A stretch of DNA of 64,000 nt from JBDRCC01 sp043822065 [NCBI: archaeon]. GTDB lineage: Archaea; Undinarchaeota; CAZHTU01. Of the stretch, positions 22,348 to 64,000 are shown piece after piece. The notes below the pieces were generated by a model. The model ran no database searches. It worked only from the letters and a program-made list of their open reading frames with translations, and was not told where the DNA came from. Positions within the stretch are counted from its first letter, which is position 1; each line of letters starts with the position of its first letter. Position numbers and translations under genes: made by a program. The stretch spans positions 1-64,000 of the forward strand of contig JBDRCC010000020.1 in assembly GCA_043822065.1 (NCBI GenBank), in the 5' to 3' direction.

Positions 22348-22386
22348 TTAGAGCAGAATTACCATCAGGTCGAATATGACCGAGCT
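22348..22386 (-). repeat. Orphan copy of the CPBP gene 3' tail
   Basis: These 39 nt repeat the last 13 codons (including stop) of the gene at 22418-23029, found there at 22418-22456, with 36 of 39 positions identical. In that reading frame all three differences are silent: ATT/ATC, CTC/CTT and stop TAA/TAG. The copy begins directly after the pdxS-like TGA stop. Confidence 0.9.
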
Positions 22387-22407
22387 CAGCTTTTTGAGAA
22401 AAAGCTG
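22387..22407. terminator. Bidirectional T-rich hairpin
   Basis: CAGCTTTTT, a 3-nt loop and AAAAAGCTG form a perfect 9-bp stem with five T residues on each strand. It lies between convergent genes and between the two tail copies, so it could end transcription from both sides. Confidence 0.6.
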
Positions 22408-22417
22408 ATGCAAAAAC

Positions 22418-23029
22418 CTAAAGCAGGATTACCATCAGGTCGAATATGACCGAGCTTATGAAATGCATCAGGAAGCTTGGCAAAATCGAATTTGTCTTCA
22501 GGTCAACCCACCCGAAGGCGTAGCCCGCGAAAAACGAGTATGGCACCTCAAGCCAGGGCTTTCCTATATGGACCAGCATGTACACGAACGAATGGACCAG
22601 GTTCCCCCACCACTTGTCCTTCAGGCTGAACAGCAGGAAGCCCCTGTAAAAGAACTCCGTCGAGAACATTATAACACCAACCAGCGCCTCGAAAGCTATG
22701 AACATCCACCAGCTGTCAAGCGCCCCCTTCCACTCGGGGTAGTACAGCTTGAAGTCCCCAAGCATTGCGCCGTATGCCATTATCGGCATTGCTACCAGAA
22801 GGAGAATTGCGGAATACTTCAGCCCCGTTCTCCAGTCCCCAAGCTGCATCCCATACGCTGGGAGCTTCTTGCCCCACGCATGCAGGACAATCATCGGGAT
22901 TGCCGCAAGGAAAAGGAACGTGTGCGCCGTCCTCATGAACACGCCTGGCGGGCTTGTGAAATAGCTGCACCATGCCAGGACGCCGGCAAGGGCGAGCACC
23001 AGCAACTTGTTGACTTTCTCAATCTTCAT
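22418..23029 (-). CDS. CPBP/CAAX-family intramembrane protease-like protein
   Basis: A polytopic protein of about 203 residues with the family motifs STEFFYRGFLL (E..xxR motif, one of the usual two glutamates replaced), FVYMLVHIGKPW and a C-terminal FLMHFISS. The family contains prenyl-protein endopeptidases and related membrane proteins. The ATG at 23029 is favoured over 23035 because the TATA box at 23050-23061 is about 26 nt upstream. Its last codons are duplicated at 22348. Confidence 0.75.
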   Translation of the reverse strand: MKIEKVNKLLVLALAGVLAWCSYFTSPPGVFMRTAHTFLFLAAIPMIVLHAWGKKLPAYGMQLGDWRTGLKYSAILLLVAMPIMAYGAMLGDFKLYYPEWKGALDSWWMFIAFEALVGVIMFSTEFFYRGFLLFSLKDKWWGNLVHSFVYMLVHIGKPWLEVPYSFFAGYAFGWVDLKTNSILPSFLMHFISSVIFDLMVILL

Positions 23030-23049
23030 GCCCACGTATAATATCTAAA

Positions 23050-23061
23050 TCTATTTATACT
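23050..23061. promoter_or_regulatory. Shared symmetrical TATA box
   Basis: CTATTTATACTG reads as a TATA element on both strands. Its centre is about 26-27 nt from both divergent ATG codons, at 23029 (minus) and 23083 (plus), so one box may serve both genes. Confidence 0.5.
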
Positions 23062-23082
23062 GAAAACTGCAATATTCCCCCC

Positions 23083-23598: not shown

Positions 23599-23614
23599 CC
23601 GCCATTCAGCACTT

Positions 23615-23812: not shown

Positions 23813-23848
23813 TAAATATTTAAATACCCAACTGTCCAATAGTCTTCT

Positions 23849-23992
23849 ATGGCAGAAGAGCACAAACACGAAACGCTCCATGAGGAGACTGGCATTAGCA
23901 AGTACCTCATAATAGCCATAGTCCTTGCGATAGTCGTAATCGCAATATTGCTAATGCCCGCTCACTGGTTCTACTGGCTAACCTACAGGTAA
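23849..23992 (+). CDS. Tiny single-pass membrane protein
   Basis: A 47-residue reading frame: a histidine-rich head (MAEEHKHETLHEE), one hydrophobic helix and the tail HWFYWLTYR. A strong TATA-like TATTTAAATAC lies 27 nt upstream. Its final codons overlap the orphan copy of the convergent gene's 3' tail. Confidence 0.55.
   Translation: MAEEHKHETLHEETGISKYLIIAIVLAIVVIAILLMPAHWFYWLTYR
23974..23992 (-). repeat. Orphan copy of the 3' tail of the gene at 24084
   Basis: CTGGCTAACCTACAGG (16 nt) recurs exactly at 24080-24095, the 3' end of the minus-strand gene 24084-24398. The adjoining codon is TTA here and CTG there, both leucine in that frame (LPVG then stop). This copy also forms the end of the plus-strand gene 23849-23992. 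Confidence 0.75.
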
Positions 23993-24079
23993 GCATCGCT
24001 TTTTGCATAAGCTTCCCGGACGAACTACGTTCGTCTGGACCCAGAAAGCTTCGCTTTTCCGGGTTTTGTAAAAAGCTGT
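23993..24079. other. Hairpin-rich insert between tail copies
   Basis: About 87 nt with nested inverted repeats: GACGAAC/GTTCGTC around a 3-nt loop, a CCCGGA/TCCGGG pair, and an outer GCTTTTTGCA/TGTAAAAAGC pair. The long imperfect palindrome could form a cruciform or a bidirectional terminator between convergent genes. No coding capacity was seen. Confidence 0.6.
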
Positions 24080-24083
24080 CTGG

Positions 24084-24398
24084 CTAACCTACAGGCAGTT
24101 TTGCTATCTGCAGGACGACGACTGTCCCTACAAGCCAGGCAACATACCCATCAAAAACAGCCAGGTTACCGAGCGAGTACCTGAAAAGCAGGGTGCTAAG
24201 GACCAGGATCACAAGGCTCATAGGCCCGGCAAGCGGCCTGACCCCGCGGTGCATAAGGTAAAGGAACTGCGCGGCTATTGTTACCAGCGCGAACGCGCCA
24301 AGCAGGTACGGGTTTGCCGCCCCGGAAAGCATGCCCCTGAACAAAATCGCCCCCACAATGACCGAAACTATGTTCGCAGGCAGGCACAGCATGAACAT
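24084..24398 (-). CDS. Small polytopic membrane protein
   Basis: A product of 104 residues with four hydrophobic segments (for example ANIVSVIVGAILF and GPMSLVILVLSTLLF). The ATG at 24398 is chosen because the TATA element TATTTATAAT (24421-24430) lies about 27 nt upstream; longer forms starting at 24416 or 24452 cannot be excluded. No family recognised. Its last codons are duplicated at 23974. Confidence 0.5.
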   Translation of the reverse strand: MFMLCLPANIVSVIVGAILFRGMLSGAANPYLLGAFALVTIAAQFLYLMHRGVRPLAGPMSLVILVLSTLLFRYSLGNLAVFDGYVAWLVGTVVVLQIAKLPVG

Positions 24399-24420
24399 AC
24401 CCAGCCTAATCCGCATTAAG

Positions 24421-24430
24421 TATTTATAAT
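24421..24430. promoter_or_regulatory. TATA box serving divergent genes
   Basis: TATTTATAAT is centred about 26 nt from the plus-strand ATG at 24451 and about 27 nt from the minus-strand ATG at 24398, a symmetrical arrangement. Confidence 0.5.
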
Positions 24431-24450
24431 ACCTCCGTCTCCTAACGCCC

Positions 24451-24540: not shown

Positions 24541-25487
24541 TGATTAGCGAATTCAGCAATTGGCTGGTTTACGGATTATTTGGGATTTCAGCCGGCTCAC
24601 CCTCAGGTGCAGCCTTGGAGTTTTTTGTTTCTGACGCAATAAAAATCCTTCTCATGCTCCTTGTTATGATAACCTTGATATCCTACCTCCGGACCTACGT
24701 CTCCGAGGAGCGCATACGCAAGTCGTTCACGGGTAAAAAAGCCGGCGCAGGGAATATTGCAGCCGCATCCTTCGGCGCGCTGACGCCTTTCTGCTCCTGC
24801 TCCTCAATCCCGATATTCCTGAGCTTTGTCGAAATGGGAATCCCGCTCGGCGTGGCATTCTCGTTCTTGATAACCTCTCCCCTGATAAACGAGTACCTTG
24901 CAGTCCTCATGTTCGCCACTTTCGGCCTGAAAGTCACTGCAATCTACATCGCAAGCGGCATGGCGATAGGAATCCTCGGTGGAATCCTCCTTGACCGCCT
25001 TGGCATGGAGAAATACCTCATCCGCGATGTCACCAAGCTCAAGTCGTGCTCCAAGAAAGCCGAGCCTAAGTCCTGGCAGGAGCGGCTTTCCTACTCCCTT
25101 TCCCAGTCAAATGCGATAATCCGGCGGATATTCCCCTACGTCCTCCTTGGGCTTGCAGTCGGCGCCTACCTGCACGCCTACATCCCTGAGGCGACTGTGC
25201 AGTCCCTCATAACTAGGACCGGCATCTTCGCAGTCCCGCTCGCCGTCGCCCTCGGCGTCCCGCTCTACGCCAACTGCGCCGCAATCGTGCCAATCGCCGT
25301 AGTCCTCTTCCAGAAGGGCATCCCCCTCGGCACAGTCCTCGCGTTCATGATGTCGACCGCCGCCCTCAGCCTGCCGGAAGCGGTAATACTCAGCAGGGTT
25401 ATGAAGCCGAGGCTCGTCGCCGTTTTTTTCGCAGTAATAGCGCTTGCAATAATTTTTACAGGCTACCTTTTCAATTTAATAATCTAG
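24540..25487 (+). CDS. COG0701 permease (ArsP/YraQ family)
   Basis: A 315-residue membrane protein with about 8 helices. It has the family signature TPFCSCSSIPIFLSF in the first half and a matching second-half segment VPLYANCAAIVPIAVVLF. A cytoplasmic loop contains KLKSCSKKAEPK. Known members export organoarsenicals or are linked to copper and other thiophilic ions; the CSC motif supports such a ligand. It is translated from an ATG overlapping the stop of the CCC-tailed peptide gene. Confidence 0.82.
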   Translation: MISEFSNWLVYGLFGISAGSPSGAALEFFVSDAIKILLMLLVMITLISYLRTYVSEERIRKSFTGKKAGAGNIAAASFGALTPFCSCSSIPIFLSFVEMGIPLGVAFSFLITSPLINEYLAVLMFATFGLKVTAIYIASGMAIGILGGILLDRLGMEKYLIRDVTKLKSCSKKAEPKSWQERLSYSLSQSNAIIRRIFPYVLLGLAVGAYLHAYIPEATVQSLITRTGIFAVPLAVALGVPLYANCAAIVPIAVVLFQKGIPLGTVLAFMMSTAALSLPEAVILSRVMKPRLVAVFFAVIALAIIFTGYLFNLII

Positions 25488-25501
25488 CCGAACATCAGCA
25501 A
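25484..25501 (-). repeat. Orphan copy of the 3' tail of the thioredoxin/DsbD gene
   Basis: An 18-nt copy of 25539-25556 with one difference, which changes the stop codon TAA to TAG in that gene's frame (LLMFG then stop). The copy overlaps the TAG stop of the permease gene by three bases. Confidence 0.8.
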
Positions 25502-25505
25502 CGAC

Positions 25506-25521
25506 CTTCTTTCAAAAGAAG
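25506..25521. terminator. Bidirectional hairpin between convergent genes
   Basis: CTTCTTT, a 2-nt loop and AAAGAAG form a 7-bp stem, bordered by CGAC and CTCG. It lies between the tail copies in the 37-nt insert and may end transcription both ways. Confidence 0.5.
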
Positions 25522-25538
25522 CTCGACCAAGAAACCAT

Positions 25539-26705
25539 TTAGCCGAACATCAGCAATTCTGGCTTAAGTATCAGGACAAATCCGAGCCCCGCAATCATCA
25601 GCCCGCTCACCAGCTTGAGCCACTTGCCCTCTTTCTGCGTGACTTGGTGCTTCGTCATCGTGTAGACCGCAATCGCGAAGATAGCAAGGTCGTCAAGCAT
25701 GTACATCAGGATGTACAGGGCAAAATACAGGTAGTACTCTATCCTCGGCAGCTCGTGCATCGAGATTATCGTTGAATATATCACCGGCAGCCCTGCCGTG
25801 CACAGCAGCTCCACGAAGTTCACGGTGACCGCGACTGCCATCACACCAAGCATCATAGCGGGCGCTATACTCTGCTTGACGAGCTCATTCATCCTGTGGA
25901 CGATCTTCTTCTTCAGGTGGAGCGGTATCGACAGTGAGATGCCCTTGCCGAACCAGAAGAAGTCCTTCAGGTTTATCACTCCAGCAGCTATCGCGCCGAG
26001 CCCGACGACTGCCCTCAGCCAGGGCATGTACTTCAGGTAGCTCACGACATTGAACGCCGCCGCTATGAACATATAATATACAAGCCCGGAGACGAAAATG
26101 AACGTCCCGCCGATTATCATCATCTTTTTCCGGTCCCCGCTCCCTATCAAAAGGGCAATCAGGAATGTCAGCACCCACATCGCGCAGGGGTTGAACCCGT
26201 CGAGCAGGCCTATCACTACCGTGAAAACCGGGAGTGAAAATGCGTCAATCCCCACCCTGCCTAAAAACGGAAGGGTAACCGTGTCTGTCGCCTCGCAGCT
26301 TTCCACTCCGTTCGGCTCGGCAATCTCCAGCGCGTCCCTGCAGCCGTTTTCTATGCACCCGGCAATCTCTGCCTCAATCTCCGCGCTGGATGTCTCATCA
26401 CTGTCATAGCCGACAAAATGTTTCTCGCCAATTATTAGGGTAGGCACCGAGGATGGGTTGAACCCGCAGGTTTCCCCCATCTGCAGGAAAAGCTCCTGGT
26501 TCGGCACGCTCTCAAGGAGTTCGTACCTGTGGACCTCAAGCTCCGGGTATTTTGCCTCCATCGCGTCAAGGAAAACCTGCTCCTTGTGGCAGTGCGGGCA
26601 GCCCTCTGCCCAGAACATGTACGCCTTAGTCTCGTGCCCGCCTGCGGCAAAGCCAAAGCTGCTGAATAGGAGCAATACTAAACAAGCGATGAAAAGCTTT
26701 TTCAT
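25539..26705 (-). CDS. Thioredoxin-like domain fused to DsbD/CcdA-type membrane domain
   Basis: About 388 residues: signal peptide (MKKLFIACLVLLLFSSFGFA), a thioredoxin fold with CPHC at about residues 38-41 (FWAEGCPHCHKEQVF), a loop with four cysteines, and six membrane helices carrying GFNPCAMWV and ELLCTAGLPVIYS. The paired cysteines are those that pass electrons across the membrane in CcdA/DsbD proteins, so the protein probably supplies reducing power to extracytoplasmic thiols. It follows the Cys-rich peptide gene by about 60 nt and may be the last gene of the ABC/DUF2318 operon, though a CATTAAAAG element could be its own promoter. Its last codons are duplicated at 25484. Confidence 0.85.
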   Translation of the reverse strand: MKKLFIACLVLLLFSSFGFAAGGHETKAYMFWAEGCPHCHKEQVFLDAMEAKYPELEVHRYELLESVPNQELFLQMGETCGFNPSSVPTLIIGEKHFVGYDSDETSSAEIEAEIAGCIENGCRDALEIAEPNGVESCEATDTVTLPFLGRVGIDAFSLPVFTVVIGLLDGFNPCAMWVLTFLIALLIGSGDRKKMMIIGGTFIFVSGLVYYMFIAAAFNVVSYLKYMPWLRAVVGLGAIAAGVINLKDFFWFGKGISLSIPLHLKKKIVHRMNELVKQSIAPAMMLGVMAVAVTVNFVELLCTAGLPVIYSTIISMHELPRIEYYLYFALYILMYMLDDLAIFAIAVYTMTKHQVTQKEGKWLKLVSGLMIAGLGFVLILKPELLMFG

Positions 26706-27053: not shown

Positions 27054-27064
27054 CCCCCCCCCCC
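27054..27064 (-). repeat. Poly(G)11 tract upstream of the Gly/Cys-rich gene
   Basis: Eleven C residues on the plus strand read as G11 between the permease TAG stop and the ATG at 27052 (only one A in between). It can act as the ribosome-binding site, and such homopolymers slip easily during replication. Confidence 0.8.
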
Positions 27065-28308
27065 TATATCTGCCTCAGAGCCTCCGCAGGATCTATCTTC
27101 GACGCCTTTAGGGCCGGATAAACTGTGGCTGCTGTCCCCACGAGGACCGCTAAAGCTACAGCTGCCACTGCAAGGTACGGGTCAAAGGCACTGGCAATCT
27201 CTACTTCAGCAATCAGGGATCCTGCAATTGATGTGACTATAATGCCTAAGGCATATCCAATTGCTCCGGATACAAGGCTAAGCACCAATGCCTCGGTTAT
27301 GAATATTCTGGCAATGTGCTGCTTTCTGAAGCCAATTGCCCTGAATATCCCAATTTCCCTTGTCCTCTCGTTTACAGAAGCCATCATCGTTGTGAACACC
27401 ATCAGCGAGCCAATTAGGAGTATAATTACCCCAACGGCCATGCCAAAGTTGCTTATCTGCTTTATTGTTTGCATCTTCTGTTCCACAACCTGCTTTATGG
27501 GCGTGGCTTTGCCATCAGGAATTGCCTCGTTTATCTGCCTCGCCATTTCCTCTACTGGGCATCCTGAGCATATAGCTGCAACTTCCACAAGGGTTATCTC
27601 ACCTTCTTTGCCAAGCAGCCGCTGGGCTGTCCGCAGGTTCATGAAAATTATTGAGTCGTCCTGGGAACCCGTTTCCTCGATGACGGCTCTTACATTGAAA
27701 CTCATCTCCCTGCCATTGCTGGAGAGTGTTACCGCATCCCCAGGCTTCTTGTTTAGCTTTTCAGCCACGCCAGACCCTATTAGGATATCTTCCTCTTTCA
27801 AGCCTGCAATTTCAGTCACAGTCACCATTTTAGTTGGGTCTATCGGGCTGGCCTTCTCCACGCGGACCAGCTCTATACCGCTCTCAGGGGTAAACTTCCA
27901 CCATTTCTTTAGCTTAATTTCAGTTGCCAGCTCGGCACCGACTAGCAGTATGGTTTCTCCATCAACATCAACTGCGCCAAGCAGCTTTTCTGACACCGTT
28001 GCAAGATTATTCTTATTTTTAATCTCCCAGATACTGTCTATCCTCTCCTCTTTTATTTGCCGAACGTCATACTGGGCGCCTGGGATTGATATCCCCCCGT
28101 AGGTCATGGACAACGTATTTGCTTTCGGGACAATCATGATGTTTGCCCCGTATTCGTCCAGCTTCTGCTGTACGTCCTGCTGCATTGCCTCAGTAATGGA
28201 GAAAATAGTCACTATGGTCGCTATGCCAATCACCATGCCAAGGACAAGGAAGAGCATCTTCTTCCTCCGCCTTTTTATGTTGTCCATTGCTATGTTTCCG
28301 AGCTTCAT
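27064..28308 (-). CDS. MacB/FtsX-family ABC transporter permease
   Basis: A 414-residue protein with one N-terminal helix (MLFLVLGMVIGIATIVTIFSI), an extracytoplasmic MacB-type domain of about 220 residues with a CSGCP motif, and three C-terminal helices including TREIGIFRAIGFRKQHIARIF and the final PALKASKIDPAEALRQI. The first base of its start overlaps the last of the DUF2318 gene. It should form the membrane part of the transporter with the ATPase at 28723-29406. Confidence 0.88.
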   Translation of the reverse strand: MKLGNIAMDNIKRRRKKMLFLVLGMVIGIATIVTIFSITEAMQQDVQQKLDEYGANIMIVPKANTLSMTYGGISIPGAQYDVRQIKEERIDSIWEIKNKNNLATVSEKLLGAVDVDGETILLVGAELATEIKLKKWWKFTPESGIELVRVEKASPIDPTKMVTVTEIAGLKEEDILIGSGVAEKLNKKPGDAVTLSSNGREMSFNVRAVIEETGSQDDSIIFMNLRTAQRLLGKEGEITLVEVAAICSGCPVEEMARQINEAIPDGKATPIKQVVEQKMQTIKQISNFGMAVGVIILLIGSLMVFTTMMASVNERTREIGIFRAIGFRKQHIARIFITEALVLSLVSGAIGYALGIIVTSIAGSLIAEVEIASAFDPYLAVAAVALAVLVGTAATVYPALKASKIDPAEALRQI

Positions 28309-28730
28309 TAGAAGTATTTCCCTCCCAGTTCAATGTCAGCTTTTTTGATTAGCACGTTTCCGCCTATAACTTCTCGGTCCAATGGCGCCGGGTTGCATCC
28401 GCCTTCCTCTATGTTTATCCTCGTGGAGGGAAACCTCCGCCCGCAGTTGTTGCAAACCATATAGTCCCCTTCCTGCCTGTAGCCCTTCTTAGCCTCAAAG
28501 CAGACATCGCAGGCGTCAAACGCCGCCCTGTATACCCCATCACTGGACTTAAGCACAAAAAAGCGGATGGTTTTCCCCCCAGCGCCGTTATAGCTGTAGA
28601 AATGCGCCTTTCCGTCATTGATTTCTGAGATTGGTATCTTTAGGGTCTGGCCCTCCTGCTGGACTTTTTCCCCACTAACACACCCTGCAACAAGAAAAAC
28701 CAAAAGAATAACGAGTCCAGATTTACCCAT
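28308..28730 (-). CDS. DUF2318-type iron-sulfur/metal-binding lipoprotein
   Basis: A 140-residue product with a lipobox-type signal (LLVFLVAGC). It has the DUF2318 cysteine pattern [27 protein letters not shown] and [10 protein letters not shown], and the terminal [12 protein letters not shown]2318 proteins accompany periplasmic iron-uptake systems, as in the Campylobacter P19 cluster with MacB-like ABC proteins and thioredoxins. The ATG at 28730 overlaps the ATPase stop, so the genes are coupled. Confidence 0.85.
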
Positions 28731-29406
28731 TTTTGACCTCCCGGTCCAGCTTGCCATCCCTCAAATGCACTATTCTATGCGCGCTCATAGCTATTTTTTC
28801 ATCATGCGTGACCATCACAATCGTTTGCCCCCCCTTGTTTAATTCCTTTATCAGGCTCAGGATCTCGTCACCGGTTTTCGAGTCAAGGTTTCCGGTCGGC
28901 TCATCCGTAAGCAGAATCTTTGGAGTATTCACAATTGCACGCGCAATTGCCACCCGCTGCTGTTCCCCCCCAGAAAGCTTGTCTGGAAGCCTATTCTCCT
29001 TGCCATGCAAGCCTACTCTTCTGAGGGCGTCCATTGCCTTCTCGAGCTGCTTTTCGCCTGGCATCTTAGAGATTGAAAGCGGCAGCATTACATTCTCCAT
29101 CGCCGTCAAATATGGGATTAGCTGGTATGACTGAAAAACAAATCCAAGGTTCCGGAACCGGAAATCTGCCTGCTTTTCCTGGTTTAAATCATATACTCTT
29201 ATATTGTCCATGGAAACAATCCCTCTCGTTGGGGTATTCAAAATTCCAAGAATGCTCAGCAGAGTGCTTTTTCCAGAACCAGACGGTCCCATAACAGCAA
29301 GCATCTCCCCTTGCTTCACATTTAAGCTCACATCCTTAAGGGCAGAGATAACCCTATTTCCATCCTCATACTCTTTTGTTATATTCTCCAATTCAATTAT
29401 GTTCAT
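28723..29406 (-). CDS. ABC transporter ATP-binding protein (MacB/LolD type)
   Basis: A 227-residue ATPase with Walker [11 protein letters not shown]-loop FVFQSYQL, signature [14 protein letters not shown], Walker [13 protein letters not shown] and H-loop MVTHDE. This places it in the MacB/LolD group, which drives mechanotransmission or export rather than solute import. It is the first gene of the operon leading to DUF2318, permease and the Cys-rich proteins. The TATA-like GCTTAATAG is about 26 nt upstream, with a palindrome behind it. Confidence 0.92.
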
Positions 29407-37740: not shown

Positions 37741-37800
37741 GCTATCCCTTTACTACCGTATTATAAATAATTTCTGCCCAGCCGCAACGCCGATGCAATA

Positions 37801-37818
37801 AGTTAGGCAAAACTAACT
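37801..37818. promoter_or_regulatory. DtxR-type operator 1
   Basis: AGTTAGGCAAAACTAACT: arms AGTTAG and CTAACT separated by 6 nt. It lies upstream of the TATA box (TTTATATAC, 37830-37837) of the DtxR gene and matches the second copy downstream. It is also about 60 nt from the hydE start on the other strand. Confidence 0.75.
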
Positions 37819-37838
37819 CTACAGAACATTTATATACA

Positions 37839-37856
37839 AGTTAGCCTAAACTAACT
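37839..37856. promoter_or_regulatory. DtxR-type operator 2
   Basis: AGTTAGCCTAAACTAACT: the same arms as operator 1 with a different 6-nt core. It sits between the TATA box and the ATG at 37862, so binding would block initiation and fits autorepression by the DtxR-family protein. The TTAGNCNAAACTAA form resembles DtxR/MntR boxes. Confidence 0.8.
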
Positions 37857-37861
37857 CTCCA

Positions 37862-55365: not shown

Positions 55366-55393
55366 TTAATTCAGGTCTACGCCGTGTTCCCAG
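55366..55393 (-). repeat. Orphan copy of the TrmB gene 3' tail
   Basis: 28 nt repeating 55473-55500, the last codons of the TrmB gene (WEHGVDLN then stop), with 26 identities. Both differences are silent in that frame (GAA/GAG and AAT/AAC). It lies 20 nt after the sppA stop. Confidence 0.9.
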
Positions 55394-55426
55394 CGACCTT
55401 TTCTTTTTAGAAAAAAGAAAACGTCG
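55394..55426. terminator. Bidirectional T-rich hairpin between tail copies
   Basis: CGAC, CTTTTCTTTTT, a short loop, AAAAAAGAAAA and GTCG form a stem of about 15 bp with runs of T on both strands. It lies between the convergent sppA and TrmB genes in the insert between the two tail copies. Confidence 0.65.
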
Positions 55427-55472
55427 ATGAAAAGAAAAACTACTTTAGTGTTCGCTCCGCTCACAGATATAA

Positions 55473-56261
55473 TTAGTTCAGGTCTACGCCGTGCTCCCAG
55501 TGGTGGTCGAACAGGTCCTGGAGGTTTCTGACAAAGTGCTCTGACTTTATCCAGATCCCATACTCCTGCTCCGCCTGGTCAGGCGACATTATCAGGAGCG
55601 CCTCTTTCCTGTCCTTGAGGAGTATCTTCGTGTTTATGCTGGCCTTCCTTATGCGGCCGTGCTTTGAAATATTCCTTGCATGCTCTGCGTGCTTCGTCTC
55701 TATGTTCCCAAGAACCTTTATCTCGATGCCCTTGGCCTTCGCCTCTTTCAGGTGGTCGACGTGGTTTGCGGCGAGGTTCCTGAGCCCATCGCCCGTGGTG
55801 AACTTGCAAATAGATTTCTCAGCCGAGAGTATCATTTCTTCGCGTTGCCGCCTCATATTATCTGTCCCCTTTATGAAGCCGCTCAGGCTTGCCGGGTCGA
55901 GCGCTGCGCTTGCGGACCGGTATATCGGGGCGAGCGTGTCGACAAACTCCTTCTGGAGCTTTTCAAGCTCGGCAACTCTCTGCTCGAACTCCTCCTGGTA
56001 ATCCGCCTTTATCCGCCTTATGACCTCTTCTGGCTTTGCAGGTATGTACCTTACCGGCCTGTCGTTCTGGACCTTTACGAAGCCTCTTTTCTCCAAGCTG
56101 GACAGGACGTCATACGCCCTGCTCCTCGGGACTCCGGATATGTCAGAGACCTCTCCCGCCGAGGAAACCCCGGTCGAAAGCAGGCCAACATACACCTTTG
56201 ACTCGTACTGGTTAAGCCCAAGCCTCTTCAGTAATGAAAATGTCTTGCCATTGCCTATCAT
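55473..56261 (-). CDS. TrmB-family transcriptional regulator
   Basis: A 262-residue protein with an N-terminal winged helix (LLKRLGLNQYESKVYVGLLSTG, core GLNQYESKVYVGL; ISGVPRSRAYDVLSSLEKRGFV, core GVPRSRAYDVLSSLEKRG) and an effector domain with CKFTTGDGLRNLAAN and FVRNLQDLFDHHWEHG. The domain resembles TrmB regulators of sugar transport, though the sugar-binding C terminus is short. A TTTATATACTT element lies about 28 nt upstream. The last codons are duplicated at 55366. Confidence 0.85.
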   Translation of the reverse strand: MIGNGKTFSLLKRLGLNQYESKVYVGLLSTGVSSAGEVSDISGVPRSRAYDVLSSLEKRGFVKVQNDRPVRYIPAKPEEVIRRIKADYQEEFEQRVAELEKLQKEFVDTLAPIYRSASAALDPASLSGFIKGTDNMRRQREEMILSAEKSICKFTTGDGLRNLAANHVDHLKEAKAKGIEIKVLGNIETKHAEHARNISKHGRIRKASINTKILLKDRKEALLIMSPDQAEQEYGIWIKSEHFVRNLQDLFDHHWEHGVDLN

Positions 56262-57239: not shown

Positions 57240-57919
57240 GCCAGAAAAAATTAGAAACCGAATCCAAAAAGCAGAACGAGAAGCTCAAGCAGATGGCAGG
57301 TACAGCGGCCGCACGCTACGTCGACGGCGGGATGGTCGTCGGGCTTGGCACGGGCTCAACCGTGAAATACACAATCCAGGAAATTGGAAGGCTGAAGCTC
57401 AAAATCCTCGGCGTCCCGACGTCTAAGGCGACCGAGCGCCTCGCAAGGACGTGCGGCATCCGGCTCACCAGCCCGAACAAGGTCGACAGCATTGACGTCA
57501 CCATAGACGGTGCCGACGAGATTGACGCTGAAATGAACCTCATCAAAGGCGGCGGAGGCGCGCTGACAAGGGAAAAGATTGTCGCCTCAATGAGCAAGCT
57601 CTACGTTGTTGTCGCCGACGAGTCAAAGGTCGTACAGACCCTTGGCAAATTTCCCCTTCCGATTGAAGTCTTAGAATTCGCAAAAAGGAATGTCTCCCGG
57701 ACGCTCCTAAAGTTTGGTGCGACTTCTGTCACCGAGCGCAAAGGGAAAACCGACAACGGCAACATCATCCTCGACGCCAAGTTCCCAGCAATACTGAACC
57801 CGCTCAAGCTCGAGAAAGATTTAAATAATCTGCCCGGCGTAATTGAGAATGGGATATTCCCGAAGCGGTACGTCAACTACGTCGTCATCGGGACAAAGAA
57901 AGGCGTAAAAACAGCATAA
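57233..57919 (+). CDS. rpiA: Ribose 5-phosphate isomerase A
   Basis: A 228-residue isomerase converting ribulose 5-phosphate to ribose 5-phosphate, the substrate of the gene upstream. Motifs are VGLGTGSTVKYTI, VDSIDVTIDGADEIDAEMNL (core TIDGADEID) and KGGGGALTREKI. The ATG overlaps prs by 7 nt, and the stop overlaps the next ATG (TAATG). Confidence 0.95.
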   Translation: MVSQKKLETESKKQNEKLKQMAGTAAARYVDGGMVVGLGTGSTVKYTIQEIGRLKLKILGVPTSKATERLARTCGIRLTSPNKVDSIDVTIDGADEIDAEMNLIKGGGGALTREKIVASMSKLYVVVADESKVVQTLGKFPLPIEVLEFAKRNVSRTLLKFGATSVTERKGKTDNGNIILDAKFPAILNPLKLEKDLNNLPGVIENGIFPKRYVNYVVIGTKKGVKTA

Positions 57920-58224
57920 TGCCAAGGACAATAAACTACGAGGAAAAGAAATTCAGGGCGAGGCAAAAAGGCCTCGGCCACATCGGCAAGGCAAGGGAGC
58001 GCGTCTGCCCGTTCTGGATTACCGCCGCAGTCGAGGAGGTCTACCGCCCGGAGCCGCGGGCAGTTTTTGTCACCCACTGCATGGCGACGGGACGGATGAT
58101 CTGCCCGCGCGACCCATACCACTACGAGACCTGCGAGTACTACCAGAAGTTCAGGCGCTCAAAGGACGAGAATGTCGACAGGACAACGACAATGCCGAGG
58201 TTCCCTGTCCCAAGCCCGGACTAA
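57919..58224 (+). CDS. Small cysteine-containing protein of unknown family
   Basis: A 101-residue soluble protein with four cysteines (RERVCPFWI, VTHCMATGR, MICPRDPYHYETCEYY) that could bind one metal ion, and the tail PRFPVPSPD. It is cotranscribed with prs and rpiA. No family recognised. An extra copy of its final 12 codons is found at 59629-59664. Confidence 0.6.
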   Translation: MPRTINYEEKKFRARQKGLGHIGKARERVCPFWITAAVEEVYRPEPRAVFVTHCMATGRMICPRDPYHYETCEYYQKFRRSKDENVDRTTTMPRFPVPSPD

Positions 58225-58256
58225 ACTATTTATAACTCAAAGTTCAAACACATTCC

Positions 58257-59525
58257 ATGAATGAAATTAGAGACTATCTCGGCCAGATACGTGCCGACGC
58301 CTTTCTAGCTTACGTCTCGCGCGAAACCCACGGTACCATAACGCAAGACATTCTGGGCGTCCCGCCCGATGCAATGACCTCAAGGGAACACTTCGCCTTT
58401 ATCTATACAGACAAGAAAAAAGTAGACTTCTTCGCCTCAAAAATCGACGAGGCTCACGTATCTGATCTTAAACACGACATCACCTTTTACTACAGCTACA
58501 GGAACAAGTACAAGCTCCTTGAAGACAAGCTCAAAGATCTCAACACCATACTGCTCGACTACTCCTTCCAGCATCCTGAGGAAGTGAAAACCCTGAAGAT
58601 GGATCCTTCAAGGTACATCAAGAAGGGTCCCGTCATTCCAGCCCTGGAGTTCGTAGATCTGCTAAAAAAGAGGGACGCTCAAATCGTTAATCAGCTGGTA
58701 CCCAAGATTGCGTTCATCTCAGACACCGGATATCTAAGCCACACCTATGCAGCAGAAAAGCTTACCGGAATCGTCTTGGACGCCTTTGAGCTAATCCGGA
58801 AAGAAGCTGGAAAAATAAGGGAGGGCGATGTGTGCAAGTTCATATACGACGAAATTAGAAAGAAAGGGATGGCGATGGAAAATCTTCCCTACGAAAAAGG
58901 GGAACAGATCCCTAATTCCAGCCCCATAGTCTCCGTCAATGAAAATGCAAGCAATGTCCACTACAAGGCTAAATTCGGCAAGGGGGCGAAAATCAAGGAA
59001 GGAGATCTCGTCCTAATAGACCTCTGGGCGAGGACACGCAGCCACTCCCCGGTTTTCGCTGACATAACCTGGATGGGCTACGTCGGTGAGGAAGTACCTA
59101 AAAAACTTGAGGATATATTCCAAACAGTCATCCAGGCAAGGGACGCAGCTGTCAGCCGGCTAATGGAGAACTATCCTGGAAAAATAACTGGCCAGGAGCT
59201 TGACAGAGTCGCCCTTGATGTCCTTGGAGGTGCTGGCTACAAGGAAGAAGCAATCATTAGCAGGCTGGGGCATGCTATGGACATTCAGGATCATGGTAAA
59301 GGAGTAAATCTTGACGACTTTGAGATCCCAGACGCAAGGGAGCTCAAGCCAAGGCTCCTCTTTACAATAGAACCTGGCCTCTACCTCCCGAAGTACGGCT
59401 TCAGAAGCGAAATAGATATCTTCCTGCACCACAACCGAGCCGAAATAACCACAATGCCCTACCAGACAAAGGTAATCCCGCTTCTCGCACCTAGGTCGTC
59501 CTGGAGCTCCTGCTGGAAAGAATAA
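58257..59525 (+). CDS. M24-family metallopeptidase (aminopeptidase P-like)
   Basis: A 422-residue protein with an N-terminal non-catalytic domain of about 170 residues and a pita-bread domain. The metal ligands fit D in LIDLWA, D in ADITW, H in GHAMDIQ, E in TIEPGLYL and E in RSEIDIF. These are the five ligands of Xaa-Pro aminopeptidases and prolidases. The gene is more A/T-rich than prs-rpiA. Its own TATA (CTATTTATAAC) is 25 nt before the ATG. It lies in the insert between the two tail copies (58189 and 59629). Confidence 0.85.
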   Translation: MNEIRDYLGQIRADAFLAYVSRETHGTITQDILGVPPDAMTSREHFAFIYTDKKKVDFFASKIDEAHVSDLKHDITFYYSYRNKYKLLEDKLKDLNTILLDYSFQHPEEVKTLKMDPSRYIKKGPVIPALEFVDLLKKRDAQIVNQLVPKIAFISDTGYLSHTYAAEKLTGIVLDAFELIRKEAGKIREGDVCKFIYDEIRKKGMAMENLPYEKGEQIPNSSPIVSVNENASNVHYKAKFGKGAKIKEGDLVLIDLWARTRSHSPVFADITWMGYVGEEVPKKLEDIFQTVIQARDAAVSRLMENYPGKITGQELDRVALDVLGGAGYKEEAIISRLGHAMDIQDHGKGVNLDDFEIPDARELKPRLLFTIEPGLYLPKYGFRSEIDIFLHHNRAEITTMPYQTKVIPLLAPRSSWSSCWKE

Positions 59526-59556
59526 AAAGTTTATATCTCCTTCGCGATAAGTCTAT

Positions 59557-59664
59557 ATGGCTTTCGTTGGTAGAACTCGATATCTAGAACTCTTGGTGGG
59601 GCTTGTTGATAACATCGAGCTAGGCATGACCCTGCCAAGGTTCCCGGTGCCGAGCCCGGACTAA
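59557..59664 (+). CDS. 35-residue frame ending in the duplicated gene tail
   Basis: A short frame from ATG at 59557 (MAFVGRTRYLELLVGLVDN) to TAA at 59662-59664. Its last 11 codons, T-L-PRFPVPSPD, copy the end of the gene at 57919. TTTATATC lies about 24 nt before the ATG, so it may be transcribed. It may be a relic of the original gene end rather than a protein gene. Confidence 0.35.
   Translation: MAFVGRTRYLELLVGLVDNIELGMTLPRFPVPSPD
59629..59664 (+). repeat. Orphan copy of the 3' tail of the gene at 57919
   Basis: 36 nt matching 58189-58224 with 30 identities. In that reading frame five of six differences are silent (Thr, Pro three times, Val) and one is Met/Leu; TAA is kept. The pattern is that of two coding ends that diverged under selection. 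Confidence 0.85.
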
Positions 59665-59697: not shown

Positions 59698-60744
59698 ATG
59701 GCGGCTTCACCAAAGCAGTTTATATCTCAGATAGAATCCAACAAGGAATACCTACGAATTGCGAAGATAGTTGTCGAAAGAACACTTGCTCTCAAGACAA
59801 CCGAGACGATTTCAATTTTTGCCGACAACGCAGCCGGTAAAATCGGTGCGGCAGTCTTCCTTGTTGCCGAAGGCATTGCAAAACAGGCGAACTTCAGGAT
59901 AATTGAGCACAGCTACGGCAAAAGGCCGATAATTGGGATCCCTACGGAAATTAAAGAGCTTACAGAGGCAAGCGATGTCGTAGTCTACGTCCTAGGCGAC
60001 CAGTACGGCGAAGAGCGCGCCGAAAACGGGATCCGGGCTTATTGGATGTTCGAATGGGCTCTCACTAAAAAGTTGGGCAGGTGCACCGGGATGCCTGGTA
60101 TCACTGAGCAGATGTTCCTTAATCTAGTCGACATAGACTACCAAAAATTAAAGGGGCGGGCGACCAAGATAGCAAAGCTCATCGCGGGGAGATACATACA
60201 CATTATTACCCCAGCCGGAACAGACCTAATATTTAGCCTCTTGAAAGCGGACGGCACCCCATGTGAGACAGACCCGGATATAGGCGAGAACCACGAGAAA
60301 GGCAAGCCTGGCGTCGCAAACATCCCCTGCGGGGAAATCTGCTATATGTATGAAATGAACACTAACCACTGCCACGGGACTGTAGTAATTGACGGTGCCA
60401 TCGGGGACTTTGGCCTTGTCGACCAGCCGCTAAGCTTTGATGTCTACAAGGGGAGGATACTCTTAGACACCATCAAAGGCGGCAAAGCTGCACAATACCT
60501 GAAGAATGAGATAAAGCGCTCCAAGGACGGCGAAGGCGCAGTCTTCAGCGAGCTGGGCATCGGCCTGAACGAAAAGGCAAAACTGCACCCCAACCTGAAC
60601 TGCCTTGAGGCGGAGAAGATATGGGGCACGGTCCACGTCGCATTTGGGCGCAAGGTGCACAACGACTGCGTCCTCAAAAACCCCAAGGTCATCGCACTTA
60701 AGCCGGAGACCGTAAAGGAGCAGAAGGAAAGCTGGAAAATCTGA
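59698..60744 (+). CDS. M29-type (leucyl aminopeptidase T-like) metallopeptidase
   Basis: A 348-residue protein with the M29 pattern: NIPCGEICYM (Glu), a VVIDGAIGD segment, SELGIGLNEKA (Glu) and GTVHVAFGRKVHNDC (His, His, Asp). It shares MPGITEQMFLNLVDIDYQKL with the product at 61945. It should be a metal-dependent aminopeptidase. A TATTATATAC-type TATA lies 26 nt upstream. Confidence 0.83.
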   Translation: MAASPKQFISQIESNKEYLRIAKIVVERTLALKTTETISIFADNAAGKIGAAVFLVAEGIAKQANFRIIEHSYGKRPIIGIPTEIKELTEASDVVVYVLGDQYGEERAENGIRAYWMFEWALTKKLGRCTGMPGITEQMFLNLVDIDYQKLKGRATKIAKLIAGRYIHIITPAGTDLIFSLLKADGTPCETDPDIGENHEKGKPGVANIPCGEICYMYEMNTNHCHGTVVIDGAIGDFGLVDQPLSFDVYKGRILLDTIKGGKAAQYLKNEIKRSKDGEGAVFSELGIGLNEKAKLHPNLNCLEAEKIWGTVHVAFGRKVHNDCVLKNPKVIALKPETVKEQKESWKI

Positions 60745-60779
60745 GCAATCCCCGAAGCATCTCGTTTTAGCTCAGATTT
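60737..60779. other. Inverted repeat at the end of the first M29 gene
   Basis: AAATCTGAGC (including the TGA stop) and GCTCAGATTT form 10-bp arms around a 23-nt loop. It could be a terminator-like hairpin or processing signal between the first two M29 genes. It is followed by the TATA box of the next gene. Confidence 0.55.
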
Positions 60780-60832
60780 CGCAGTGCAGAAACCGCAGTT
60801 TTTATATATGCCACTAGCAAATAGTATCTCTA

Positions 60833-61912
60833 ATGGGGAGCTTGCAACAGGGCGCATATAACGCAGTCAAAGTCTGCATGGGCGTCAAGAGGGGCGAAAG
60901 AGTCACAATAATAACTGACGACTCTGCAATGCAGATTGCAACCGCCCTCAGAACAGAAGCGGAGAAACTTAAAGCAAAGGTTTCTTTCTTCAACCTCGAT
61001 GATTTTGAGAACCGGAGGGCGAGCAAGAAAAACCTCCTTAAGAAGGCGCCGAAGGAAGTCCTCGAAGCCATAGAGGACTCGGACATCACTTTCTACAATG
61101 CCGCGGACAAGCAGTTTGGCTCGAATACCGAGGTCCAGGCTAGAATCAAGATATGGGAGCACGCCATACAATATGCCCGGCACGCCCACATGCCCGGAGT
61201 AAGTGTTAAGATGATGGAAACCGGCATGTGCGTCGACTACAAGAAAGTTCACAAAATTACGCACAAAGTCTACGGCGAGTTCCTGAAGGATGCAAAAAGC
61301 ATGCACATAGCATCCAGGGCAGGAACAGACTTAGCCATCATGTTCGGGCCGACAAACAAGTACCCAGATGCCAGATGGCGCGCCTGCGGCGGGCTTTACC
61401 ACAAGAAAGGCGAGAGCGGAAACCTCCCGGAGGGCGAGGTATTCACCTGCCCGATTCGTGTCAATGGCGACCTTGTCTTCGACGGCTGCATCGGGGAGTT
61501 GTCCAAGGACGACCTTGAGGAGACAAACCAGGTAATAAGCATGAAGGTGGTGGACAGCTTTTGTGAGCGGGACAGCATAAACTGCCGCAACAAGGACCTC
61601 GAGTCGGCTTACAGGAACTACCTTTCCAAGCATCAGAATTCTTACCGAGTTGGCGAGATAGGCGTCGGGACCAATGTACTTTTGAGGAAATACGGCTTCG
61701 TCGGGCACATGCTCCAGGACGAGAAATACCCGGGCATCCACATTGCCTTCGGGGAGTCAAGCCCTGACGACACCGGCATCAGCTGGGAGAAGGAAGGCGG
61801 CGACCCGCCGACGCACATAGACGGCTTCATAAAACACGCCACGCTTGATGTCACGGACAAGGACGGAACGACAAAGCGGCTCCTCAAGAACGGAAAATTC
61901 GTTTTCGAGTGA
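60833..61912 (+). CDS. M29-type aminopeptidase, second copy
   Basis: A 359-residue paralogue with NLPEGEVFTCP, GEIGVGTNVLLR, GIHIAFGESSPDD and PPTHIDGF. A region with MPGVSVKMMETGM resembles MPGITEQMF. The sequence is quite diverged from the copies on either side, so the genes are not recent duplicates. TTTTTATATATG lies about 27 nt upstream. Its TGA stop abuts the orphan copy of the topA tail. Confidence 0.83.
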   Translation: MGSLQQGAYNAVKVCMGVKRGERVTIITDDSAMQIATALRTEAEKLKAKVSFFNLDDFENRRASKKNLLKKAPKEVLEAIEDSDITFYNAADKQFGSNTEVQARIKIWEHAIQYARHAHMPGVSVKMMETGMCVDYKKVHKITHKVYGEFLKDAKSMHIASRAGTDLAIMFGPTNKYPDARWRACGGLYHKKGESGNLPEGEVFTCPIRVNGDLVFDGCIGELSKDDLEETNQVISMKVVDSFCERDSINCRNKDLESAYRNYLSKHQNSYRVGEIGVGTNVLLRKYGFVGHMLQDEKYPGIHIAFGESSPDDTGISWEKEGGDPPTHIDGFIKHATLDVTDKDGTTKRLLKNGKFVFE

Positions 61913-61928
61913 TTATTTCTTGCCCCAG
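61913..61928 (-). repeat. Orphan copy of the topA 3' tail
   Basis: 16 nt that match 63169-63184 (end of the topoisomerase gene, WGKK then stop) at 15 positions; the only change is stop TAA against TAG. It starts immediately after the TGA of the M29 gene at 60833-61912. Confidence 0.75.
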
Positions 61929-61944
61929 CCTCGCTAATCCCTAC

Positions 61945-63111
61945 CTACTTGCTTATTACCCACTTGCCTTTCAGGTTAATGCCGGAGGTGCCTTGCAGTA
62001 TCAGTTTGTCACCGATATAAATCGCGGGATTGTACATGAGGTAGTCACAGTGCGTCTTAGAGCCAAATCCCAAGTGGCATGTCCCAACTGCCTTCTCTGC
62101 CTCTAGCAGGGTCGTACCCTTGTAGATACTAGCATTTGGATTAGTGCCTATGCCAACTTCGAATAGGACGCCCCTGTCATTAGGCTCTCCTGCAACAAAC
62201 TCCTTCATCCACTCCGTCGCGTCATCCCTTGCGGGGTCAACCGCCTCTATGGTCCCTTCGAGTATACGCCCGCTCTGGACCTCAAACCTAATCGGTCCAT
62301 CCAATATCCCGCCAGTTTCCTCTTCCTTATACATCCCACTCAAGCCGTCAATAACAACAACGCCGCTGGCTTGCATGTAATCGACAGGCTCCCAGAAAGT
62401 TTCGCCGCCTGGCAAATTCCTCATGTTCTTCACTTTGGTAATATCTCCATTGCTTAAGTCCACTTTACTCTTCCCGCCAAAGAGCCTTATTTTCTTTCCG
62501 GTCACCAGGCTTACCTTGATGTCGGTGCCAGCAGGAGTCCTTATGCGGACATTTTCCTTGTCATTCAATAAGTCCCGTATCGTTTCACAATTTTTTTGTA
62601 TTTCTTTGTAATCTATATCTATCAATGTCGTATACATCTTCTCAGTTATGCCTGGCATCGGGACGCACCGGGTGGCATCTTCTTCCTTTAAGTGCCGCGG
62701 ATACTTCTTGCGGGTATCATCAAAGTTCTTGGATAGCAGCAGCGCCCACACCTGCCTGACTTCCCCCTTCACTATGTCCTCCCCGCCGCTTATCCCATAG
62801 ATGACAATGTCCGCAGATTTGCACTCGTCAATTAAGCGGTCCCCTGGCTTAACTGGGCTCTTCGGGTCGTCAAGGGATAGCGGAACTTTTTTTCCGTAGA
62901 ATGCTGCTGTGCGGTAGCCCTTTTTTATTTCTATGTCGCCGCCATCCACCACGGTTAGGTAAACGTGGCCGCTAATCTTGCGTGCCTCTTCATAAAGGCT
63001 GATAAACATGCTCCTGTGCGCCTTATCCGTGAAAATTAGCAGCTTTTCGTCCTTTCTAAGGCCTATTGCTTCCTTTACAATCCTTGAGCTTGCGCTTTTC
63101 AGGCTTGCCAT
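61945..63111 (-). CDS. M29-type aminopeptidase, third copy (opposite strand)
   Basis: A 388-residue paralogue with NLPGGETFWEP, FEVGIGTNPNASIY, GTCHLGFGSKTHCDY and MPGITEKMYTTLIDIDYKEI. It lies within the segment between the topA tail and its orphan copy, in the same direction as topA. It is visibly more A/T-rich than topA. TTATATACC about 34 nt upstream may be its promoter. Confidence 0.83.
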   Translation of the reverse strand: MASLKSASSRIVKEAIGLRKDEKLLIFTDKAHRSMFISLYEEARKISGHVYLTVVDGGDIEIKKGYRTAAFYGKKVPLSLDDPKSPVKPGDRLIDECKSADIVIYGISGGEDIVKGEVRQVWALLLSKNFDDTRKKYPRHLKEEDATRCVPMPGITEKMYTTLIDIDYKEIQKNCETIRDLLNDKENVRIRTPAGTDIKVSLVTGKKIRLFGGKSKVDLSNGDITKVKNMRNLPGGETFWEPVDYMQASGVVVIDGLSGMYKEEETGGILDGPIRFEVQSGRILEGTIEAVDPARDDATEWMKEFVAGEPNDRGVLFEVGIGTNPNASIYKGTTLLEAEKAVGTCHLGFGSKTHCDYLMYNPAIYIGDKLILQGTSGINLKGKWVISK

Positions 63112-63168
63112 CTGCGTTGTCTTAAATGTTTTGTATCCTGCGGTATATAACTCTTTGTGTCGCTTACG

Positions 63169-64000
63169 CTATTTCTTGCCCCAGTCGGCCTTCGATTTGC
63201 ATTTCGGGTCTATGCACATCTCCCACGGCCTCTTGCCGCGGTTTATTACCTTGATGACCGGCTTGCCGCACTCCTTGCATACCTTGCCCTCACCCTTTAT
63301 CAGCCCTCCCTGCGGGAGCGGGTAGCTATTGCTGCACTTCGGGTAGTTTGAGCAGCCAGCAAACCGTTTCTTCGAAACCTTTGCACGGATTATCCTCAGC
63401 TCGCCCTCGCCGCAGGCTGGGCACTTCCCTATTGCCTTCTCCGCCTTTTTCGTCTCTATGTATGAGGACTGGAGCTCCCTTCCGATTTCAAGCTCGTCCT
63501 CCTTGAATTTTGACAGGACTTCCGTCAGGATGGTCTTCGCGTCCTCAAGAACGTCTTCCTGCCTCATCTTGCCGGACTGTATTGCCTCCATGTCATCCTC
63601 AAACTTCCGCGTCAGCGCGGGGTCTATTATCTGCGGGACGTGCTTCTCGAGCGTGGAAATGATGTTCATCCCGAGCTCCGTGACTTCTATCGACCTGCCC
63701 GTGATGTAGTTCCTGTCCTGCAGGGTGGTTATTATCTGCGCCCTCGTCGACTTTGTCCCGAGCACGAGCGAGTCAAGCTTCCTTATGAGGGACGCCTCAG
63801 TGTACCTTGCAGGCGGCTGGGTCTGCTTTTCGTGCAGCTCTATCCCAAGCACATTTAGACTGCCACCCTTTGACAGGTCAGGTATCTCGTCCTCCTTCAG
63901 CCCGACGTATGGCTCATACAATACGTGCCAGCCCTTCTCGACAGTCCTTGTCCCCTTGGAGATGAACGGCTCTTCCGCGACGAGTATCCTTGCGGCTACG
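63169..64000 (-). CDS. topA: DNA topoisomerase I (type IA), C-terminal part
   Basis: The frame is open to the window edge, so the N terminus with the catalytic tyrosine is missing here. The visible part has YTEASLIRKLDSLVLGTKSTRAQIITTLQDRNYI (core EASLIRKLDSLVLGTKSTRA), typical of type IA topoisomerases, and two zinc ribbons: CPACG..CSNYPKC and CKECG..CIDPKC. The last codons are duplicated at 61913. Confidence 0.93.
   Translation of the reverse strand, partial: VAARILVAEEPFISKGTRTVEKGWHVLYEPYVGLKEDEIPDLSKGGSLNVLGIELHEKQTQPPARYTEASLIRKLDSLVLGTKSTRAQIITTLQDRNYITGRSIEVTELGMNIISTLEKHVPQIIDPALTRKFEDDMEAIQSGKMRQEDVLEDAKTILTEVLSKFKEDELEIGRELQSSYIETKKAEKAIGKCPACGEGELRIIRAKVSKKRFAGCSNYPKCSNSYPLPQGGLIKGEGKVCKECGKPVIKVINRGKRPWEMCIDPKCKSKADWGKK

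What the first reader, a model, noticed from the sequence alone, without database searches (positions are those of the whole stretch)
22348..63184. Six insertions behind gene 3' ends, each leaving a second, synonymously diverged copy of the gene tail
At six loci the last 5-13 codons and stop of a gene occur twice: once intact and once as an orphan tail further downstream. The insert between them is a hairpin-bearing spacer (22387-22417, 23993-24079, 25502-25538, 55394-55472) or a whole peptidase gene with its own promoter (58225-59628, 61929-63168). Across the loci I count about 15 nucleotide differences between copies; 14 preserve the encoded residue or stop, including three TAA/TAG stop-for-stop changes. 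Non-coding duplicates made by simple target-site duplication would drift at all codon positions. The pattern therefore suggests that both tails were once real gene ends, as when an element carries an attP-like copy of its target gene's 3' end, or when DNA from a related strain recombined there. Orphan tails abut or overlap the neighbouring stop at several loci, implying ancestral abutting convergent genes. I know of no named system that matches this.
Basis: partly seen in the sequence, partly recalled or inferred. Interest (0 to 1): 0.9.

Follow-up and report, generated by a model that had tools for sequence, protein, structure and literature searches.

The report
Gene tails doubled by inserted DNA
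At six places in this archaeal DNA a gene's last few codons are present twice, on either side of a small hairpin spacer or a foreign-looking peptidase gene, and the two copies differ like versions of the gene from two related lineages; this looks like the scar of recombination between relatives rather than a dedicated new system, but six scars in 64 kb is unusual.

Summary
Six gene tails (5-13 codons with stop) recur downstream of the intact tail, separated by 31-87 nt (four loci) or by a peptidase-like gene (two loci). Over 50 paired codons there are 15 nucleotide differences; one codon changes its residue and three are TAA/TAG swaps. Drift of a dead copy gives so few residue changes in 0, 0 and 1 of 4000 simulations. 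None of 140 gene tails in three control stretches has such a copy. Similarity stops 0-4 nt past the stop codon, as if the gene end was shared by two lineages and the DNA behind it was not. No integrase, transposase or homing endonuclease was recognised in the 70 of 84 gene calls scanned. Best explanation, inferred: recombination between lineages about 10% apart set a donor gene end with its own downstream DNA beside the last 15-39 nt of the resident gene end. The closest known anatomy, C-terminal duplications of fungal mitochondrial genes, has an endonuclease gene in the insert; none is here. No related genome could be reached, so insert-free forms and an assembly chimera remain untested.

The parts
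22348..22386 (-). L1 orphan tail (12 codons + TAA) of the MrtA-like/Rce1-like gene; starts right after the PdxS-like stop
22387..22417 (.). L1 insert, 31 nt hairpin spacer; holds an 11-nt copy of part of the PdxS-like gene's tail
22418..22456 (-). L1 intact tail (12 codons + TAG)
   Evidence: the gene matches Pfam Rce1-like over the cut-off and NCBIfam MrtA below it
23978..23992 (-). L2 orphan tail LPVG*, overlapping the last codons and stop of the predicted plus gene 23849-23992
23993..24079 (.). L2 insert, 87 nt branched hairpin
   Evidence: z -4.6 plus strand, -2.0 minus strand
24084..24098 (-). L2 intact tail LPVG*; match extends 4 nt past the stop (24080-24083)
25484..25501 (-). L3 orphan tail LLMFG* (TAG), overlapping the plus-gene stop as CTAG
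25502..25538 (.). L3 insert, 37 nt hairpin spacer (weak)
   Evidence: z -1.4/-2.0
25539..25556 (-). L3 intact tail LLMFG* (TAA)
55366..55392 (-). L4 orphan tail WEHGVDLN*, 20 nt after the S49-peptidase stop
   Evidence: S49
55394..55472 (.). L4 insert, 79 nt; a hairpin with 18-nt arms (55391-55429) at its left edge
55473..55499 (-). L4 intact tail of the TrmB-family regulator
58189..58224 (+). L5 intact tail TMPRFPVPSPD* of gene 57919-58224
58257..59525 (+). L5 inserted M24-family peptidase gene, codon-usage outlier (z -4.8)
59629..59664 (+). L5 orphan tail TLPRFPVPSPD*, in frame with a 35-codon open frame from 59557
61913..61927 (-). L6 orphan tail WGKK* (TAA); starts right after the stop of gene 60833-61912
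61945..63111 (-). L6 inserted M29-like gene (Pfam match below its cut-off), codon-usage outlier (z -5.7)
63169..63183 (-). L6 intact tail WGKK* (TAG) of the topoisomerase I gene

Best explanation
The six loci are scars of recombination between two related lineages whose coding DNA differs by about 10%. In one lineage gene B ends against its neighbour A; in the other, B is followed by different DNA (a terminator-like hairpin spacer or a peptidase gene). A recombinant formed with one homologous crossover inside a gene and one non-homologous join at the edge of homology, so the second lineage's B end and downstream DNA now stand beside the last 15-39 nt of the first lineage's B end. Shown: the doubled tails, their synonymous divergence, the end of similarity at the stop codon, the outlier codon usage of the two inserted genes. 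Inferred: two lineages, the direction of transfer, the type of join, and a role of the hairpins as terminators for both genes at L1-L4. No dedicated enzyme is needed, and recombination between the two tails would remove the insert and leave a working gene.
For: 15 differences over 50 codons with one residue change. Under drift of a dead copy so few residue changes arise in 0, 0 and 1 of 4000 runs for all six loci, 0, 1 and 2 of 4000 without L2 and L3, and 1, 1 and 1 of 4000 without L5, at transition weights 1, 2 and 4. Similarity ends 0-4 nt past the stop at all six. By z-score the two inserted genes rank 3rd and 5th lowest in codon usage among 71 genes scored; per codon they are less extreme, about 7th and 9th-10th. 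T runs of 5 or more follow 5 of 8 gene ends at the hairpin loci, 4 of 24 other convergent ends and 7 of 51 codirectional ends (p = 0.023 against the 24). At L1 the right-hand copy also carries 11 nt of the A tail at nearly the same distance from the B stop (10 against 9 nt), as if a second A-B junction stood there. No recombinase recognised in the 70 of 84 gene calls scanned. Illegitimate joining of heterologous DNA helped by a homologous anchor is known from natural transformation (PMC6382021, passages).
Against: No related genome could be searched, so neither lineage has been seen. Nothing here explains why all leftovers are only 15-39 nt. Six events in 64 kb is many. The hairpins of L1 and L2 share 14 of 15 nt in opposite orientation, and that motif has 11 matches with up to 3 mismatches in the window against 3.8 expected, two of the 11 being L1 and L2 themselves, which hints at a repeated element. 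The A-tail match at L1 is barely above its null (11 against a shuffle maximum of 10), a place in another gene matches 10 nt of the same stretch, and one other gene tail scores higher than the own A tail. It does not recur: for L2, L3 and L4 the own A tail ranks 79, 20 and 73 of 84 over 40 nt and 53, 35 and 4 of 84 over 80 nt. The terminator role is weak: 7 or more T in 8 follow 1 of 8 ends at the hairpin loci and 3 of 24 others, and a terminator-like scan of 20-30 kb found 8 sites against 10.9 in shuffles, one of them at L3.
Confidence: 0.48

Rival explanations
1. Insertion with duplication of the target (by a transposase-like or template-switch event), followed by replacement of the B allele through homologous recombination with a relative, so that the orphan is a fossil of the older allele.
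For: Gives the synonymous pattern without a donor that carries the insert; direct repeats flank every insert.
Against: A target duplication need not end at the stop codon, yet all six do (Fisher p = 0.0056, with lengths and overhangs set by hand and the gapped A-tail match at L1 not counted); lengths vary from 16 to 39 nt; no transposase recognised in 70 of 84 gene calls; no terminal inverted repeats at L5 and L6.
Confidence: 0.14
2. Assembly or consensus artefact: two related strains in one sample were merged, and the orphan tails come from the strain without inserts.
For: No genome is held for the window, so it may be a metagenome record; the orphan is what an insert-free strain would show next to gene A.
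Against: All six events sit at gene 3' ends and leave the flanking reading frames whole, which assembly errors have no reason to do; the longest identical run per locus is only 12-29 nt (read); at L2 both copies are needed as the ends of two genes, if the predicted 47-codon gene is real.
Confidence: 0.15
3. Dedicated mobile units, each carrying an alternative gene tail, as in fungal mitochondrial gene hybrids or integrase elements that restore their target gene.
For: Similar anatomy in PMC3630166 (passages); archaeal elements do use 3' ends of genes (14 of 68 with defined sites in PMC6563490, passages); L1 and L2 hairpins share a 15-nt stretch with one mismatch, with more loose matches in the window than expected.
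Against: The inserts encode no recognised integrase, Cas1 or homing endonuclease; four are 31-87 nt; no terminal repeats at the two gene-sized inserts; no shared target sequence apparent.
Confidence: 0.13
4. Plain tandem or target-site duplication with neutral drift of the dead copy.
For: Short direct repeats; the 11-nt A-tail copy at L1 is what a tandem duplication of the junction would leave.
Against: So few residue changes arise in 0, 0 and 1 of 4000 simulations for all six loci at three transition weights; at L1 the 9-10 nt between the matched blocks are unrelated, not mildly drifted.
Confidence: 0.06

Closest known systems
C-terminal gene duplications with mobile ORFs in fungal mitochondrial DNA (Glomus atp6, atp9, cox2, nad3; Allomyces atp6)
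   Same: A downstream insert, a replaced gene tail, the older tail left behind the insert; four genes in one genome; atp6 copies 63.5% alike in DNA, 91% in protein (PMC3630166, passages)
   Different: There the insert encodes a LAGLIDADG or GIY-YIG endonuclease and the compared tails span 51-298 alignment positions; here 31-87 nt hairpins or peptidase genes and tails of 15-39 nt
Archaeal integrated elements using the 3' end of a protein-coding gene
   Same: Gene end reconstituted by the element, old end displaced (PMC6563490, passages)
   Different: Those named in the passages are mostly multigene elements with casposase or tyrosine recombinase; none recognised here, and six different targets
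Homology-facilitated illegitimate recombination in natural transformation
   Same: A homologous anchor plus a join to heterologous DNA (PMC6382021, passages)
   Different: Described there for competent bacteria; the parents of the present joins are unseen, so microhomology cannot be judged
[quoted passage not shown]
   Same: Exchange of gene fragments between species through an insert (PMC7315562, abstract)
   Different: Introns and 5' gene parts; Rfam gave only two tRNAs for the window at gathering score

Membership tests
Fungal-type gene hybrid with mobile ORF | Duplicated gene C-terminus on both sides of an insert | tested here: met
Fungal-type gene hybrid with mobile ORF | Insert encodes a homing endonuclease | tested here: not met
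   L1-L4 are 31-87 nt; L5 is M24, L6 M29-like
Integrase-type element in a gene 3' end | Recombinase gene in the element | tested here: not met
   None recognised in the inserts, nor among the 70 of 84 gene calls scanned; sequence outside the window not searched
Integrase-type element in a gene 3' end | Tail carried by the element restores the target gene | tested here: inconclusive
   Synonymous divergence fits but fits lineage recombination and allele replacement too
Transposon or casposon with target-site duplication | Terminal inverted repeats and fixed-length target duplication | tested here: not met
   No TIR at L5 or L6 above the null; duplications 16-39 nt
Homology-facilitated illegitimate recombination | One homologous junction and one microhomology junction between two known parents | not testable with these tools
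   No relative available
Bidirectional transcription terminator | T-rich tract and hairpin after both convergent genes | tested here: inconclusive
   Hairpins at L1-L4; T runs of 5 or more enriched, p = 0.023, but not windows with 7 of 8 T; no excess in a terminator-like scan; no transcript data

The most novel reading that the evidence does not exclude
Short hairpin elements and single-gene cassettes in this archaeon move as units that carry their own copy of a gene's last codons, swap it for the resident tail on arrival and leave the old tail behind, so that compact, overlapping genes can be separated without loss of function and the insert can be removed again by recombination between the two tails.
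Probability: 0.12. Interest if true: 0.85.

Novelty: new variant of a known kind. Interest (0 to 1): 0.5.

Why it matters
In compact archaeal genomes genes abut or overlap, and it is unclear how new genes and terminators get in without breaking neighbours. Doubled tails with synonymous differences would be a readable footprint of such arrivals, dating the exchange and pointing to the lineages involved. If a mobile unit is behind it, it would be a prokaryotic counterpart of the fungal mitochondrial gene hybrids.

Tried and rejected
Relatives: two scans of genome contigs (the protein at 56382-57239, called PRPP-synthase-like from memory, and Elp3) found no relative; four scans of viral contigs (Elp3, M24, M29-like, PdxS-like) found none. 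The tool picks short exact peptide patterns, so this does not show that no relative is held.

Insert made of a degenerate A tail (tandem duplication of the junction): an exact 11-nt match at L1 (own A tail ranks 2 of 84), not supported at L2 and L3; at L4 the rank is 73 of 84 for 40 nt and 4 of 84 for 80 nt. Kept only as a remark on L1.

Homology extending further inward from the orphan tails: none better than chance; shuffles reaching the score were 194, 49, 99, 297, 147 and 232 of 300 for L1-L6. The local alignments of L2-L4 only matched the insert to itself, because the stretches given overlapped.

Known RNA family in the inserts: none at gathering score. The 35-aa open frame ending in the L5 orphan has an ambiguous coding score, -3.5 in frame.

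One search used L4 orphan coordinates one base off; its totals were discarded and one search replaces it. One search gave the start of the 35-aa frame two bases off; the right start, 59557, is printed in the same call.

Gene calls not scanned against any family library: 14 of 84 (3211, 3932, 4128, 5805, 6359, 6747, 16683, 19096, 20053, 23615, 23849, 43364, 56382, 57233, by first base). Control rows dropped: features cut at the ends (unless the stop lay inside), RNA genes, a mobile-element line and two tiny ORFs (yacM, ypeD).

Literature on this pattern in prokaryotes: the entries listed (some lists cut to the best 8-10) showed no paper describing it; the library lacks most subscription papers. 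Paquin et al. 1994 (Allomyces) was not held and is known here only through PMC3630166. PMC7237163 (archaeal termination) was seen in passages only.
Full report
What was checked. The window is archaeal by content: fibrillarin-like protein, an aNOP56 match below its cut-off, Elp3, TrmB regulators, and TATA-like boxes: of 16 gene starts with a strong match, 11 have it 27-35 nt upstream. That it belongs to a DPANN-like lineage is a guess from memory. No genome is held for it. I built a gene map by codon scoring (84 calls) and scanned every gene tail for a second copy.

The repeats. Six loci stand out. B is the gene whose tail is doubled and A the neighbour. L1: 22348-22386 orphan, 22418-22456 intact. 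L2: 23978-23992 and 24084-24098. L3: 25484-25501 and 25539-25556. L4: 55366-55392 and 55473-55499. L5: 59629-59664 and 58189-58224. L6: 61913-61927 and 63169-63183. In every case the orphan lies downstream of the intact tail on the strand of B. L1-L4 and L6 are convergent junctions, 5 of the 16 in the window; L5 is a tandem junction. The orphan abuts the stop of A at L1 and L6, overlaps the end of A at L2 and L3, and lies 20 nt from it at L4.

Chance. In the window 8 of 84 tails score 15 or more; two belong to tandem paralogues and were dropped, leaving six. In-gene positions gave 3 of 268 and gene starts 2 of 84 at that score, places not inspected. In three outside stretches of 50 kb, 0 of 140 tails did. 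The controls are one haloarchaeal plasmid and E. coli, not close relatives.

The synonymous pattern. 50 codon pairs hold 15 differences, 10% of 150 nt. One codon changes its residue (L5, Met/Leu); three differences are TAA/TAG swaps. Counting one more codon at L5 would add a second residue change, Thr/Met. I simulated duplication followed by free drift of the orphan and synonymous-only change of the intact copy, both at the same mutation rate. At most the observed number of residue-changing codons arose in 0, 0 and 1 of 4000 runs for all six loci with transition weights 1, 2 and 4; in 0, 1 and 2 of 4000 without the overlapping loci L2 and L3; and in 1, 1 and 1 of 4000 without L5. So the two copies most likely diverged while both were under selection as gene ends. 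At L3 the change (ATC TAG against ATT TAG on the plus strand) is silent in the A frame and a stop swap in the B frame (read).

Where similarity ends. Beyond the stop codon of B the copies agree for 0, 4, 2, 2, about 2 and 0 nt. Under target-site duplication with free placement this has Fisher p = 0.0056 (lengths and overhangs entered by hand). Two lineages that share gene B but differ behind it would give this by default. The exception is L1, where after 9-10 unmatched nt an 11-nt stretch of the A tail matches again. On the inner side the copies diverge abruptly, with no further similarity above chance.

The inserts. L1-L4 are 31-87 nt with hairpins: L2 z -4.6 on the plus strand, L1 -2.7, the others weaker. 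Runs of five or more T follow 5 of 8 gene ends at these loci against 4 of 24 other convergent ends (p = 0.023), but windows with 7 of 8 T do not differ, 1 of 8 against 3 of 24, and a terminator-like scan of 20-30 kb shows no excess. A role as terminator for both genes is plausible but weakly supported. Archaeal termination at T stretches, and less efficiently at a hairpin, is described for Haloferax (PMC7237163, passages). The hairpins of L1 and L2 share 14 of 15 nt in opposite orientation. L5 and L6 hold an M24-family gene and an M29-like gene, the latter below Pfam's cut-off; their codon usage ranks 5th and 3rd lowest by z-score among 71 genes, less extreme per codon. The M29-like gene is only 23-28% identical to its two neighbours, so it is not a recent local duplicate.

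No machinery. Among the 70 of 84 gene calls scanned in at least one of NCBIfam, Pfam or PHROGs, with different cut-offs, no integrase, transposase or homing endonuclease was listed. L5 and L6 have no terminal inverted repeats above the null.

Interpretation. The pattern asks for two diverged versions of each gene end. Recombination between related lineages, with a homologous crossover on one side and an irregular join on the other, supplies them without special enzymes; the insert is then the donor's own downstream DNA. An older insertion followed by replacement of the B allele would explain the synonymous pattern too, though not the end of similarity at the stop codon. An assembly chimera remains possible because no reads or relatives could be consulted, but errors of assembly have no reason to fall six times at gene 3' ends while keeping the frames whole.

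Known kinds. Glomus mitochondrial atp6, atp9, cox2 and nad3 each carry a duplicated C-terminus with an inserted endonuclease ORF; the two atp6 copies are 63.5% alike in DNA and 91% in protein (PMC3630166, passages). Thaumarchaeal elements sit in 3'-distal parts of protein-coding genes in 14 of the 68 cases with defined sites (PMC6563490, passages). The present loci look like the aftermath of such events but fail the defining feature of both, an endonuclease or recombinase in the insert.

Noticed in passing
window 59557-59664: A 35-codon open frame with a TATA-like box about 27 nt upstream ends in frame in the L5 orphan tail, so that tail may still be translated in a new context.
   Followed up: partly
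window 37797-37861: Two copies, 38 nt apart, of a palindrome-like motif (AAGTTAGsCwAAACTAACTC) just upstream of a small regulator-like gene followed by feoA and feoB; possibly an iron-regulator operator (inference).
   Followed up: no
window 60732-60784: An inverted repeat (15-nt arms, 23 nt apart) includes the end of gene 59698-60744; an inverted rather than direct copy of a gene tail.
   Followed up: no
window 44762-49909: 1715-codon gene, the strongest codon-usage outlier (z -11.8, scored from 44930), with PHROG matches including a virion structural family.
   Followed up: no
window 6359-7572: Three tandem paralogous genes with a repeated motif, copies 391 and 430 nt apart.
   Followed up: no
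window 27064-29406: ABC-transporter/FtrD-like block with outlier codon usage (z -3.9 to -6.7) lying between ordinary genes; no doubled tail stood out for it in the whole-window scan.
   Followed up: partly
window, 11 places: The 15-nt motif shared by the L1 and L2 hairpins (AAGCTKATGCAAAAA) has 11 matches with up to 3 mismatches against 3.8 expected, L1 and L2 included; the other nine were not examined.
   Followed up: no
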